Positions 6,668 through 32,651 of a stretch of 35,451 nucleotides of DNA are shown in pieces. The notes under the pieces were generated by a model, which saw only the letters and a list, made by a program, of their open reading frames with translations, did no database searches and was not told where the DNA came from. The position numbers and the translations under genes are program-made. How positions within the stretch are numbered: the first letter of the stretch is position 1; the number at the start of each line of letters is the position of its first letter. This DNA comes from an uncultured bacterium. Its GTDB lineage: Bacteria; Nitrospirota; Thermodesulfovibrionia; Thermodesulfovibrionales; Dissulfurispiraceae. The stretch spans positions 1-35,451 of the forward strand of contig CALGPO010000032.1 of NCBI GenBank assembly GCA_937960465.1. The letters are read 5' to 3'.

Positions 6668-6674
6668 GTAATAT

Positions 6675-6755
6675 CTAAGTTGAGCGATTTTGTAAGACAG
6701 GCCTGCCTGTGCGTTGCACGCAGACAGGCCTGAATATAGAATCGCTCAATTTAGG
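6675..6755. repeat. F3 inverted-repeat element, copy 1 (81 bp, nested palindrome)
   Basis: ctaagttgagcgattttgtaagaCAGGCCTGcctgtgcgttgcacgcagaCAGGCCTGaatatagaatcgctcaatttagg. Outer arms TTGAGCGATT/AATCGCTCAA; inner GC-rich palindrome. Confidence 0.9.
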
Positions 6756-10520: not shown

Positions 10521-10574
10521 CTAAGTTGAGCGATTTTGTAAGGCAGGTCTGAATATAGAATCGCTCAATTTAGG
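10521..10574. repeat. F3 inverted-repeat element, copy 2 (54 bp, lacks inner palindrome)
   Basis: ctaagttgagcgattttgtaaggcaggtctgaatatagaatcgctcaatttagg; same outer arms as copy 1; between the convergent dgkA-PAP2 and typA genes. Confidence 0.9.
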
Positions 10575-10650
10575 TGACAGTTGTGGTGATTCTTTTTGAC
10601 TTTTTTCCTGCTGGCTTTCTATAACATCTTCGTTTTTGTATCGAACAGTT

Positions 10651-18327: not shown

Positions 18328-18522
18328 CTACTTCTTTGATGCTTCTGCTGGCTGTTCAGGAGCCTGTGCTGGCTGTTCAGGAGCTGGTGCCGGCTGTTCA
18401 GGAGCCGGAGCTGGTGCTGGTGCCTCAGGAGCCTTTGGCTCTTCAGCCTTTTTGCAACCAACTGTCAGGGTAAATGCTACCAGAAGCATAAGGGAAAGTA
18501 TAAGAGCTAATACCTTCTTCAT
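18328..18522 (-). CDS. Small Pro/Ala-rich lipoprotein
   Basis: MKKVLALILSLMLLVAFTLTVGC lipobox, then (APAPEQP)n tail encoded by about 21-bp tandem repeats. Confidence 0.75.
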   Translation of the reverse strand: MKKVLALILSLMLLVAFTLTVGCKKAEEPKAPEAPAPAPAPEQPAPAPEQPAQAPEQPAEASKK

Positions 18523-22351: not shown

Positions 22352-22449
22352 GATTATGTAATTTAGTTTATGGAGTTGGTTTATGTCAAGACAGTGCCAT
22401 AACCCATACGTTAAGCAATACTTGTGTAATTCGGATTCAAACATTATGA

Positions 22450-22534
22450 ACCTTAATGTTGCATAGACAGCAAGGACTAACATTCTTCAAAGCCATTACA
22501 AGCGACAGAAACCGTATTCATGCAGAGTATAAAA
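22450..22534 (+). repeat. F1 MITE-like element, truncated copy A (left part only)
   Basis: accttaatgttgcatagacagcaaggactaacattcttcaaagccattacaagcgacagaaaccgtattcatgcagagtataaaa matches the left part of copy B with few differences, then switches to nuclease-gene sequence. Confidence 0.88.
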
Positions 22535-22609
22535 GTTTTATTCGCTTGCTTTGATAACTTTTCTGAAGATGCGGCAAATAACCGTAATGCTCCATGGCTC
22601 AATTATTAA
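22529..22609 (+). pseudogene. Internally deleted fragment of the TdeIII-like endonuclease gene
   Basis: 22529-22595 matches 987-1053 at 66/67 nt (single difference at 22562); 22595-22609 (tggctcaattattaa) matches 1613-1627 exactly. Same strand and order. Confidence 0.92.
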
Positions 22610-22825
22610 CCTTAATGTTGCATAGATAGCAAGGACTAACATGCTTCAAAGCCTTTACAAGCGACAGGAAACCGTATTCATGCAGAATATAAATGTTTTA
22701 ACAGAGACTTGAATCCAATGCTGAATACGATATGGTGGTATGAAAATCTTATAAGGTGTCGCAGGCAAAGTCTTTTACGCATGTTAGTCCTTGCTGTAAT
22801 CTGTGATTTTATGCAACTGTAAGGT
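22609..22825 (+). repeat. F1 MITE-like element, copy B (217 bp, long imperfect terminal inverted repeats)
   Basis: ACCTTAatGTTGCATA...(217 bp)...TATGCAACtgTAAGGT; inner arms AGCAAGGACTAACATGC / GCATGTTAGTCCTTGCT. Near-identical to the reverse complement of 31158-31374. Confidence 0.92.
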
Positions 22826-29286: not shown

Positions 29287-29445
29287 ATGGAAAAGTGGAA
29301 ATGCAGCGTATGCGGTTATGTATATGACCCCGAATACGGAGACCCTGACTCAGGTGTTGCAGCAGGAACGCCATTCGAAAAACTCCCGGATGACTGGGTA
29401 TGCCCTGTTTGCGGTGCAGGAAAGGACATGTTCGAGAAGGTTTAA
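29287..29445 (+). CDS. Rubredoxin (not in the ORF track, too short)
   Basis: Translates to [52 protein letters not shown]; two CxxCG knuckles. Confidence 0.97.
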
Positions 29446-29456
29446 AGGAGGAAATC

Positions 29457-29957
29457 ATGAATGCAGTTGAAATAGCCATAAAGATGGAGACAGATGCCAT
29501 AAAATTCTACAAAGAGGCATCAGACAAATGTAATCACGCAGTCGGTAAAAAGATGTTTCTGTCCATAGCAGAGGATGAGAAAAGACATCTTGATATGCTC
29601 TCGGAATTATTGAAAGGACTTGACTTCAAGATCCAAGAGGCATCTCCGATGAAGAATATGAAGACGATTTTTGAAGAGATGAAGCACGAGATGATGGAAA
29701 GAGTTGAGGCTACAAAGGATGAACTGGAGGCATTCAAGATTGCTGCTGATATGGAAAAACATGGGGTTGAGTTTTATAAAAAGGCTGCATCTGATGCCCC
29801 TACAGAAAAAGAGAGAAATCTCTTTGAAAGGCTTGTCCATGAAGAAGAGCAGCATTACGCAGTCTTTGCAAATACCTATTTCTTCATGTCCGATACAGGA
29901 AACTGGTTCATGTGGGAAGAGCACAGCATTGTGGACGGCGGAACGCCCTGGGCATGA
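29457..29957 (+). CDS. Ferritin-like/rubrerythrin-type diiron protein
   Basis: AIKMETDAIKFYKEASDKC...MFLSIAEDEKRHLDML...MEKHGVEFYKKAASDAPTEKERNLFERLVHEEEQHYAVF; ExxRH/ExxQH pattern. Confidence 0.9.
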   Translation: MNAVEIAIKMETDAIKFYKEASDKCNHAVGKKMFLSIAEDEKRHLDMLSELLKGLDFKIQEASPMKNMKTIFEEMKHEMMERVEATKDELEAFKIAADMEKHGVEFYKKAASDAPTEKERNLFERLVHEEEQHYAVFANTYFFMSDTGNWFMWEEHSIVDGGTPWA

Positions 29958-30000: not shown

Positions 30001-30082
30001 CCTAAATTGAGCGATTCTATATTCAGGCCTGTCTGCGTGCAACGCACAGGCAGGCCTGCCTTACAAAATCGCTTAAGTTAGG
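30001..30082. repeat. F3 inverted-repeat element, copy 3 (82 bp, inverted relative to copies 1-2)
   Basis: cctaaattgagcgattctatattCAGGCCTGtctgcgtgcaacgcacaggCAGGCCTGccttacaaaatcgcttaagttagg; reverse complement of copy 1 with few changes. Confidence 0.9.
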
Positions 30083-30105
30083 TATAAGTTATAAGTTTTA
30101 AGATT

Positions 30106-30328
30106 TAACCTGAATTACGCAAGTATTGATAGCATATGGCAGCAGGTGTGCTGAAAAGACTTTACACTTTAGAACATTATAATAAGGCATTCTCTTGAAT
30201 CCGTCACCTACTACATTGCTATCTATTTTAGGTAAAGGCGTTAATAGTCTTCTAATATGCATAAAAACAACGACTTTGTAAAGGCTTTGATGCACACCTG
30301 CTGCCATATATTGCGTAATTCGGGTTTA
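30106..30328. repeat. F2 MITE-like inverted-repeat element (~223 bp)
   Basis: Arms taacctGAATTACGCAAgtattgatagcaTATGGCAGCAGGTGTGC... and ...GCACACCTGCTGCCATATATTGCGTAATTCgggttt; ends abut the dapB stop codon. Shares TTGTAAAGGCTTTGA[A/T]GCA with F1. Confidence 0.85.
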
Positions 30329-30329
30329 A

Positions 30330-31133
30330 CTATTTTAGTCCTAATACATCCTGCATATCATAGAGTCCAGAAGTCCGGCCTGAAATCCACAGTGCTGCCT
30401 TTAATGCGCCCCTTGCAAAGGTATCCCTGCTTGATGCCTTGTGCGTAATTTCTATTCTCTCTCCCAGTCCTCCGAATAATACTGTATGCTCCCCAACAAT
30501 GTCTCCGGCCCTTACTGTCTGAATGCCTATTTCCTTTTTCGTTCTCTCGCCGATTAATCCTTTTCTTGCATAAACAGCCACATCGTCAAGGTCTCTATTG
30601 ACTGCATCTGCAATCACCTGCGCCATCTTCATGGCTGTACCGCTTGGAGCATCCTTTTTCAATCTGTGGTGGGCTTCTATTATTTCAATGTCATAGTCAT
30701 CACCAAGCACCCTTGCAATATCCTGCAAAACTTTGAGAAGGAGATTAACGCCAACGCTCATATTCGGGGCAAGAACTATGGGAATATTCTTTGAAAATTC
30801 TTTTATCAGTTCCATATCTTCTTTTGAGAATCCAGTTGTGCCGATTACCATTGCCTTTTTTCTTTCGGAAGCTAACTTTGCATGCTGCAGCGTTGAATTT
30901 ATGGATGTGAAGTCGATGATGACATCACAGGTGTCGATAATATCTTCGAGTCTATCTGTCAATTTTATGTTTGTTTCACCGATTCCTACAATCGGGCCAA
31001 TGTCTTTACCTATTGCGTCATGTCCTTTCCTCTCGATTGCTCCTACAAGTTTTAAATCATGATAATCCTTCGAAAGGGCAGTAATCCTGCTTCCCATCCT
31101 TCCTGTTGCGCCTGTCACAATAATCCTTGTCAT
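30330..31133 (-). CDS. dapB: 4-hydroxy-tetrahydrodipicolinate reductase
   Basis: IIVTGATGRMGSRI, EAHHRLKKDAPSGTAMKMA, IQTVRAGDIVGEHTVLF. Confidence 0.96.
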   Translation of the reverse strand: MTRIIVTGATGRMGSRITALSKDYHDLKLVGAIERKGHDAIGKDIGPIVGIGETNIKLTDRLEDIIDTCDVIIDFTSINSTLQHAKLASERKKAMVIGTTGFSKEDMELIKEFSKNIPIVLAPNMSVGVNLLLKVLQDIARVLGDDYDIEIIEAHHRLKKDAPSGTAMKMAQVIADAVNRDLDDVAVYARKGLIGERTKKEIGIQTVRAGDIVGEHTVLFGGLGERIEITHKASSRDTFARGALKAALWISGRTSGLYDMQDVLGLK

Positions 31134-31157
31134 AATGCAAGTCCTCCTTTTATATCA

Positions 31158-31374
31158 ACCTTACAGTTGCATAATATCACAGGTTACAGCAAGGACTAAC
31201 ATGCGTAAAAGACTTTGCCTGCGACACCTTATAAGATTTTCATACCACCATATTGTATTCAGCATTGGATTTAACCCTCTGTTAAAACATTTATACTCTG
31301 CATGAATACGGTTTCATGTCGCTTGTAAAGGCTTTGAAGCATGTCAGTCCTTGCTGTCTATGCAACATTAAGGT
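31158..31374 (-). repeat. F1 MITE-like element, copy C (217 bp, inverted relative to copy B)
   Basis: accttacagttgcata...tatgcaacattaaggt; reverse complement aligns along its whole length with 22609-22825; identical length. Confidence 0.92.
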
Positions 31375-31556
31375 CAATTATCAGTTTCTTTTTTCTCTTT
31401 CTCTCCCTTTTCCCCTGTCCCTTCTCCCGGAACCTTATACTCTTCAGATGCCCATTTGCCGAGGTCTATCAGTTTGCACCGTTCTGAGCAGAATGGCCTC
31501 CACGGATTTTCTTCCCATGTTGTCTTCTTTTTACAAACAGGACATACAATCTGCAT
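31374..31556 (-). CDS. yacG: DNA gyrase inhibitor YacG-like zinc protein
   Basis: [37 protein letters not shown] is the YacG (DUF329) zinc-finger signature. Confidence 0.92.
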
Positions 31557-32585: not shown

Positions 32586-32651
32586 TGCACCTAAAATGCA
32601 TGTCAGGTGCGGCGAAAAGGGGTGTCTTTGAGTTGTGCTTGACATACGAAG

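What the first reader, a model, noticed from the sequence alone, without database searches (positions are those of the whole stretch)
30106..30328. F2: second ~223-bp inverted-repeat element sharing architecture with F1 despite diverged sequence
F2 has arms GAATTACGCAA..TATGGCAGCAGGTGTGC with an ~11-nt one-sided insert (gtattgatagc) in the same place where F1 has its asymmetric bulge. It shares TTGTAAAGGCTTTGA[A/T]GCA (30276-30294 vs 31323-31341) and an AAAAGACTTT block in the other arm. Sequences of the paired stems differ between F1 and F2 while pairing is kept, which suggests structure-level conservation: a superfamily of hairpin elements, possibly mobilised by one enzyme or expressed as structured RNA.
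Basis: partly seen in the sequence, partly recalled or inferred. Interest (0 to 1): 0.6.

Follow-up and report, generated by a model that had tools for sequence, protein, structure and literature searches.

The report
Mobile hairpin elements with conserved structure
This 216-base sequence is one copy of a large family of tiny jumping DNA elements, found across the bacterial phylum Nitrospirota, whose folded hairpin has been kept through compensating mutations while its stem letters and its outer ends have changed, so it is probably the hairpin, not the sequence, that does the work.

Summary
F2 is a 216-bp element (30109-30324) with 14-bp imperfect terminal inverted repeats (TIRs) and a TTTAA target duplication. 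F1 (31159-31373) is a homologue with other TIRs and a 4-bp duplication. Both are multicopy. A covariance model built without F1 finds F1 in the window (E about 1e-9 to 1e-11). In 21 diverse cores, 17 of 24 pairs carry double-sided compensatory changes and 98% of pair cells are kept (76% in shuffles); 103 copies agree. So structure-level conservation is supported. A single mobilising enzyme is not: at least four TIR types occur on the same core, with duplications of 4, 5, 5 and 6 bp. One type (CCYAAATTGAGCGATT) matches an end of an IS1380-family insertion sequence in the same genome; no autonomous partner was found for F1 or F2. A deeper model hits 47 of 296 Nitrospirota genomes. The core is not coding, not in Rfam, and not tied to REP-type transposases. 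G.U pairs far exceed A.C mismatches on the plus strand, which suggests it folds as RNA or single-stranded DNA. Copies lie mostly antisense to flanking operons. Best reading: a MITE superfamily with a selected hairpin, mobilised in trans by several transposases. The hairpin's job is unproven.

The parts
30104..30108 (.). left copy of the 5-bp target duplication TTTAA of F2
   Evidence: sequence
30109..30324 (+). F2 element (216 bp), plus strand = the strand whose pairs tolerate G.U
   Evidence: model R1 match 30134-30309 +, 160 bits
30109..30122 (+). left terminal inverted repeat CCTGAATTACGCAA
30123..30133 (+). one-sided 11-nt insert GTATTGATAGC; an insert of 11-13 nt sits at the same place in the F1, A and D subfamilies
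   Evidence: compared by eye
30134..30151 (+). 5' arm of the covarying middle stem
30155..30166 (+). conserved AAAGACTTTACA, 5' arm of the inner stem
30167..30276 (+). large loop with the conserved block CTTGAATCCGTCAYCTACTACATTG (F2, A and D subfamilies)
30277..30288 (+). conserved TGTAAAGGCTTT, 3' arm of the inner stem
30292..30309 (+). 3' arm of the covarying middle stem
30311..30324 (+). right terminal inverted repeat TTGCGTAATTCGGG
30325..30329 (.). right copy of target duplication TTTAA
   Evidence: sequence
31159..31373 (+). F1 element (215 bp), TIR CCTTACAGTTGCAT, target duplication TCAA (31155-31158, 31374-31377); same superfamily
22610..22824 (-). second F1 copy in the window
22451..22540 (-). 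truncated F1 copy joined to a fragment of the restriction gene
30001..30082 (+). F3: 82-bp element with the A-type TIR and 5-bp target duplication TATAA, no core
32595..32650 (+). likely internal-deletion derivative of an A-type hairpin (arms kept, loop lost)

Best explanation
F2 is a non-autonomous, MITE-like transposable element of a superfamily found across Nitrospirota. Each copy has an outer pair of TIRs, usually starting with CC, and an inner imperfect hairpin (one-sided 11-13 nt insert, middle stem of 14-19 bp, usually a small internal loop, AAAGNCUUU inner stem, large loop). Shown: multicopy mobility with target duplications, homology of F1 and F2, and pairing kept by compensatory change while stem sequences diverged. 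Inferred: DDE transposases supplied in trans cut at the TIRs, of the IS1380 family for the CCYAAATTGAGCGATT subfamily and of unidentified type for F1 and F2; the hairpin core is a reusable module that has been combined with at least four TIR types; and the hairpin is selected as a folded plus strand (RNA or single-stranded DNA), possibly to help transposase recognition or synapsis, or to limit harm to host transcripts. The last step is the least certain.
For: Copies: 70 blast matches to F2 and 114 to F1 in the own genome, each count including fragments and arm-to-arm self matches. Exact target duplications at one fixed length: F1 4 bp in 18 of 28 (3.3 by shuffling), F2 5 bp in 4 of 10 (0.6), A-type 5 bp in 11 of 38 (1.4), D-type 6 bp in 6 of 17 (0.3). 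F1 is inserted inside an F2 copy with TTAA on both sides (L110; L009). Covariation: 17 of 24 pairs with double changes, 98.0% of cells paired vs 75.7% shuffled, score 0.675 vs 0.222, slid controls 0.165 or less; 103 copies 97.2% vs 76.5%, score 0.588 vs 0.199. Model R1, built without F1, finds both F1 copies (E 2.9e-9, 2.9e-11), each better on one strand. Deep model R2: 47 of 296 Nitrospirota genomes. G.U vs A.C on the plus strand: 189:33 with an aligner blind to the difference, 71:21 without the two tandem-wobble columns, against 15:11 in the young F1 copies. The A-type TIR matches the visible end of an IS1380-family insertion sequence in the same genome (L147: CCCAAGTTGAGCGATTTT). IS1380 elements make 4-5 bp duplications (PMC12116815).
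Against: No autonomous element with F1 or F2 ends was found in the own genome or 27 relatives. The D-type duplication of 6 bp does not fit IS1380. The second end of IS L147 lies beyond the contig. Arms of an inverted repeat can also be kept alike by template-switch correction without selection, although young F1 copies show only one double change against 26 G.U or A.C cells. The G.U excess is partly shared by descent. No promoter signal and no transcript data.
Confidence: 0.75

Rival explanations
1. Ordinary palindromic MITEs without any function of the hairpin: arms stay complementary because mismatches are corrected by intrastrand template switching, and the shared blocks are inherited by descent.
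For: Bacterial MITEs commonly yield transcripts that form stable stem-loops (PMC10969869); the fold is almost equally stable on both strands.
Against: Consistent asymmetries are not homogenised: the tandem wobble UG/GU is present in 56 of 103 copies, and the one-sided insert persists. Young F1 copies show 26 G.U or A.C cells and only one double change. Loop blocks stay conserved while TIRs and stems change.
Confidence: 0.25
2. A host non-coding RNA or cis-regulatory hairpin carried between genes and retained because it processes or stabilises operon mRNAs (as reported for Correia or ERIC elements).
For: Copies sit close to both flanking genes, mostly between co-directional genes, with strong orientation bias (39 antisense vs 11 sense; 33 vs 6, p = 1.4e-5; these sets overlap in part).
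Against: The strand present in the mRNA is then the minus strand, whereas the strand that keeps G.U pairs is the plus strand; TIRs and target duplications mark the copies as mobile.
Confidence: 0.15
3. REP-like elements mobilised as single-stranded hairpins by an HUH (RAYT, Y1) transposase.
For: Y1 transposase genes occur in 12 of 18 genomes searched; plus-strand folding with G.T tolerance would fit single-stranded DNA.
Against: Fixed-length target duplications and TIRs; of 30 Y1 loci searched, cores lie near two by model R2, plus one weak hit by R1; G005, G024 and G169 have many cores and no Y1 hit.
Confidence: 0.05

Closest known systems
Bacterial MITEs (review PMC10969869)
   Same: 50-500 bp, TIRs, target duplications, AT-rich intergenic targets, non-coding, transcripts that would fold into stable stem-loops
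   Different: Here one hairpin core with covariation support is shared by subfamilies with at least four TIR types and different duplication lengths, and it reaches several classes of a phylum
IS1380 family insertion sequences (ISEcp1/ISEc9; PMC2887853, PMC12116815)
   Same: Ends start with CC (the ISEc9 IRL ACGTAGAATCTAGG reads CCTAGATTCTACGT in the other direction) and 4-5 bp duplications; an IS1380 transposase gene in the same genome is next to the A-type TIR
   Different: F1 and F2 TIRs are not those of any IS found; no transposase gene inside; D-type duplication is 6 bp
REP/REPIN elements with RAYT (PMC3116915)
   Same: Short hairpin repeats, many per genome, mobilised in trans (from general knowledge of REP/RAYT)
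   Different: TIRs with target duplications, about 215 bp, no consistent link to Y1 genes
Correia and ERIC elements (discussed in PMC10969869)
   Same: Imperfect palindromes near genes that can be transcribed and fold
   Different: No sequence relation was looked for; conserved internal loop and compensatory stem evolution as tested here

Membership tests
MITE (non-autonomous DNA transposon) | terminal inverted repeats | tested here: met
MITE (non-autonomous DNA transposon) | target site duplication of fixed length | tested here: met
   (5 bp for F2, 4 bp for F1)
MITE (non-autonomous DNA transposon) | multiple dispersed copies, no coding capacity | tested here: met
MITE (non-autonomous DNA transposon) | an autonomous element with the same TIRs | tested here: inconclusive
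   A-type: IS L147 shares the TIR at its one visible end; F1 and F2: none found in the own genome or 27 relatives
IS1380-derived MITE | CC ends and 4-5 bp duplication | tested here: met
   (for F1, F2 and A-type; not D-type)
IS1380-derived MITE | TIR shared with an IS1380 transposase gene | tested here: not met
   not met for F1 and F2; met for A-type only
REP/RAYT system | hairpins flanking a Y1 transposase gene | tested here: not met
Known structured RNA family (Rfam) | covariance model match | tested here: not met
   none at gathering; only sub-threshold eukaryotic entries
Small protein gene | conserved open frame | tested here: not met
   (frame shifts between copies, stops)
Functional RNA | transcript detected | not testable with these tools
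   no RNA-seq available

The most novel reading that the evidence does not exclude
An ancient, Nitrospirota-wide selfish hairpin module that survives by exchanging its outer ends, thereby using several different DDE transposases, and that acts as a folded plus-strand RNA or single-stranded DNA during transposition; its active strand is tolerated only when it is antisense to host transcription.
Probability: 0.25. Interest if true: 0.82.

Novelty: new variant of a known kind. Interest (0 to 1): 0.62.

Why it matters
Bacterial MITEs are usually seen as decayed insertion sequences in which only the ends matter. Here an internal hairpin is kept by compensatory change across genera and families while the ends are replaced, which would mean that a non-autonomous element can carry a selected structure of its own and switch between transposases. 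It gives a family defined by a covariance model, absent from Rfam 15, that can be mapped across Nitrospirota and tested for a role of RNA or single-strand folding in DDE transposition. It probably also explains many contig breaks in this assembly, since contigs often end inside F1 copies.

Tried and rejected
Coding: an open minus-strand frame QSLYK...VVGDGFK in F2 shifts frame and gains stops in other copies. Rfam: no match at gathering, only chance microRNA-type and lncRNA hits below threshold in five loci. REP/RAYT: Y1 genes not tied to cores. Internal promoter: best sigma70-like score not clearly above shuffles on either strand. Autonomous partner for F1 and F2 by TIR pairs: none (isolated TIR sites followed up in G034, G018, G005 and G028 turned out to be ends of hairpin elements or a tiny derivative). 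A replication rather than transcription origin of the orientation bias: in the complete genome G003, of five co-directional sites where gene direction opposes the assumed replichore, four follow the genes and one follows replication, so transcription is favoured but not proved; origin and terminus were assumed, not located. Papers: no description of such elements in Nitrospirota found in the held library.

Full report
WHAT IS THERE. F2 lies between a rubrerythrin-like gene (29430-29957, +) and dapB (30330-31133, -). Its exact borders are 30109-30324 with TTTAA on both sides. The arms are CCTGAATTACGCAA / TTGCGTAATTCGGG; the left arm then has an extra 11 nt (GTATTGATAGC), followed by an 18-bp stem, a 3x3 loop (UGA/GAU), AAAG/CUUU, one mismatch, CUUUACA/UGUAAAG, and a loop of 110 nt. 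The fold is far better than shuffles (z = -8.1, 0 of 200). F1 (31159-31373, duplication TCAA) has the same layout with different letters in the stems.

COPIES AND MOBILITY. Blast gives 70 matches for F2 and 114 for F1 in the own genome; both counts include fragments and arm-to-arm self matches, so real copies are fewer. Many contigs end inside F1, so assembled copies are a lower bound. Four TIR types were analysed: F1 (CCTTAMWGTTGCATA), F2 (CYYRAATTACGCAA), A (CCYAAATTGAGCGATT) and D (CCATAATCCGTAA). Exact flanking duplications peak at one length per type: 4 bp (18 of 28; 3.3 in shuffled pairings), 5 bp (4 of 10; 0.6), 5 bp (11 of 38; 1.4) and 6 bp (6 of 17; 0.3). The A set includes short F3-type elements that have the same TIR but no core. 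An F1 copy sits inside an F2 copy with TTAA on both sides (L110; L009).

STRUCTURE. Blast hits in more distant genomes covered only the interior (query positions about 28-201, most often 37-180, of 216), and those copies turned out to have the same inner hairpin with other ends. From 21 diverse cores RNAalifold predicts 24 pairs, 17 of them with changes on both sides; 98.0% of cells form standard pairs (75.7% in column shuffles), covariation score 0.675 (0.222), and slid versions reach at most 0.165. In 103 copies from 8 genomes the figures are 97.2% against 76.5% and 0.588 against 0.199; that alignment (A2) was fitted to the model, so A1 is the cleaner test. The model R1 was built without F1 and still finds both F1 copies in the window, 2.9e-9 at 31187-31356 (+) and 2.9e-11 at 22627-22796 (-), each clearly better on one strand than on the other.

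DEPTH. R1 hits 15 of 60 relatives, with 46 matches (the scoring cap) in several genomes. A deeper model R2, built from 13 members including F1, F2 and order-level relatives, hits 47 of 296 Nitrospirota genomes including other classes. Most members outside the F2, A and D lineages share an inner helix (GCGAYACCUU ... AUCGC). The F1-type TIR recurs with hairpin cores in other genera and in a different family of the order (G018, G028, G034), so it may be the older end type, with A, D and F2 ends derived; this ordering is inference. Other phyla were not searched with the model; an exact pattern scan of named genomes across phyla (TTGTAAAGGCTTTGAWGCAYRYC) found only two Nitrospirota assemblies.

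WHICH STRAND. On the plus strand (defined by the shared motifs) G.U pairs greatly exceed A.C mismatches. An aligner that treats the two alike gives 189:33 in 119 non-redundant arm pairs. Two neighbouring columns hold a tandem UG/GU in 56 of 103 copies, and most other copies have one wobble there. Without these columns the ratio is 71:21. Among 33 distinct young F1 copies it is 15:11, so mutation alone does not seem to produce the excess, though the samples are small and copies are related. This favours selection on a folded plus strand, RNA or single-stranded DNA.

WHERE COPIES SIT. Between co-directional genes the plus strand is mostly antisense: 39 against 11 in a first set and 33 against 6 in a second (p = 1.4e-5); the sets overlap in part, and gene calls are simple open-frame calls. 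In the complete genome G003 I count 17 of 18 co-directional sites as antisense from the table. This may reflect selection against the plus-strand hairpin in mRNA, or an insertion preference; it is not resolved.

MOBILISING ENZYME. Two IS1380-family transposases in the own genome (NCBIfam equivalog cut-off passed) have TIRs CCCAAGTTGAGCGATTTT (L147, matching the A-type; its other end is beyond the contig) and CCTATTTTGCCGATAG (L149, matching another small element, F4, that interrupts an F2 copy at C128). IS1380 elements make 4-5 bp duplications (PMC12116815), and ISEcp1 transposition favours AT-rich targets (PMC2887853). No IS with F1 or F2 ends was found. So IS1380-type mobilisation is suggested by TIR sharing for A-type only and is inferred by analogy for F1 and F2; D-type (6 bp) probably uses another enzyme.

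WHAT IT IS NOT. Not coding, not an Rfam family, not linked to Y1/RAYT genes, no promoter enrichment.

VERDICT. F2 is a genuine copy of a structure-conserved MITE superfamily.

Noticed in passing
22451-22609: A truncated F1 copy is joined at a 12-13 nt microhomology to a 67-nt piece that is 99% identical to part of the TdeIII-type restriction gene at 987-1053 of this window, followed 14 nt later by a full F1 copy: looks like a template-switch or gap-repair scar.
   Followed up: partly
30001-30082; about 6673-6754; about 10521-10580: F3 repeats with A-type TIRs around a palindromic centre (82 bp with 5-bp duplications at the first two sites; the third is shorter); the GTGCAACGCAC palindrome of 30001-30082 also appears as an indel in the loop of some F2 copies.
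   Followed up: partly
L223, L224, L230 (G001): Double elements: two cores in opposite orientation about 18 bp apart, with D-like repeats at the outside.
   Followed up: no
L108, L106 (G000 C128, C108): F4, a small element containing GTCATTGCGAGCGAAGCGAAGCAATCTC and sharing the TIR of the IS1380 element L149; in L108 it is inserted into an F2 copy, in L106 it follows an F2 end near the contig end.
   Followed up: partly
L109 (G000 C148:9481): Tiny F2 derivative of about 46-48 bp that keeps only the TIRs and a few bases.
   Followed up: no
22423-22438: TTGTGTAATTCGGATT, resembling a worn F2 right end, just outside the truncated F1 copy.
   Followed up: no
18341-18441: Short tandem repeats with 21-27 bp spacing (GCTGGCTGTTCAGGAGC-like).
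   Followed up: no
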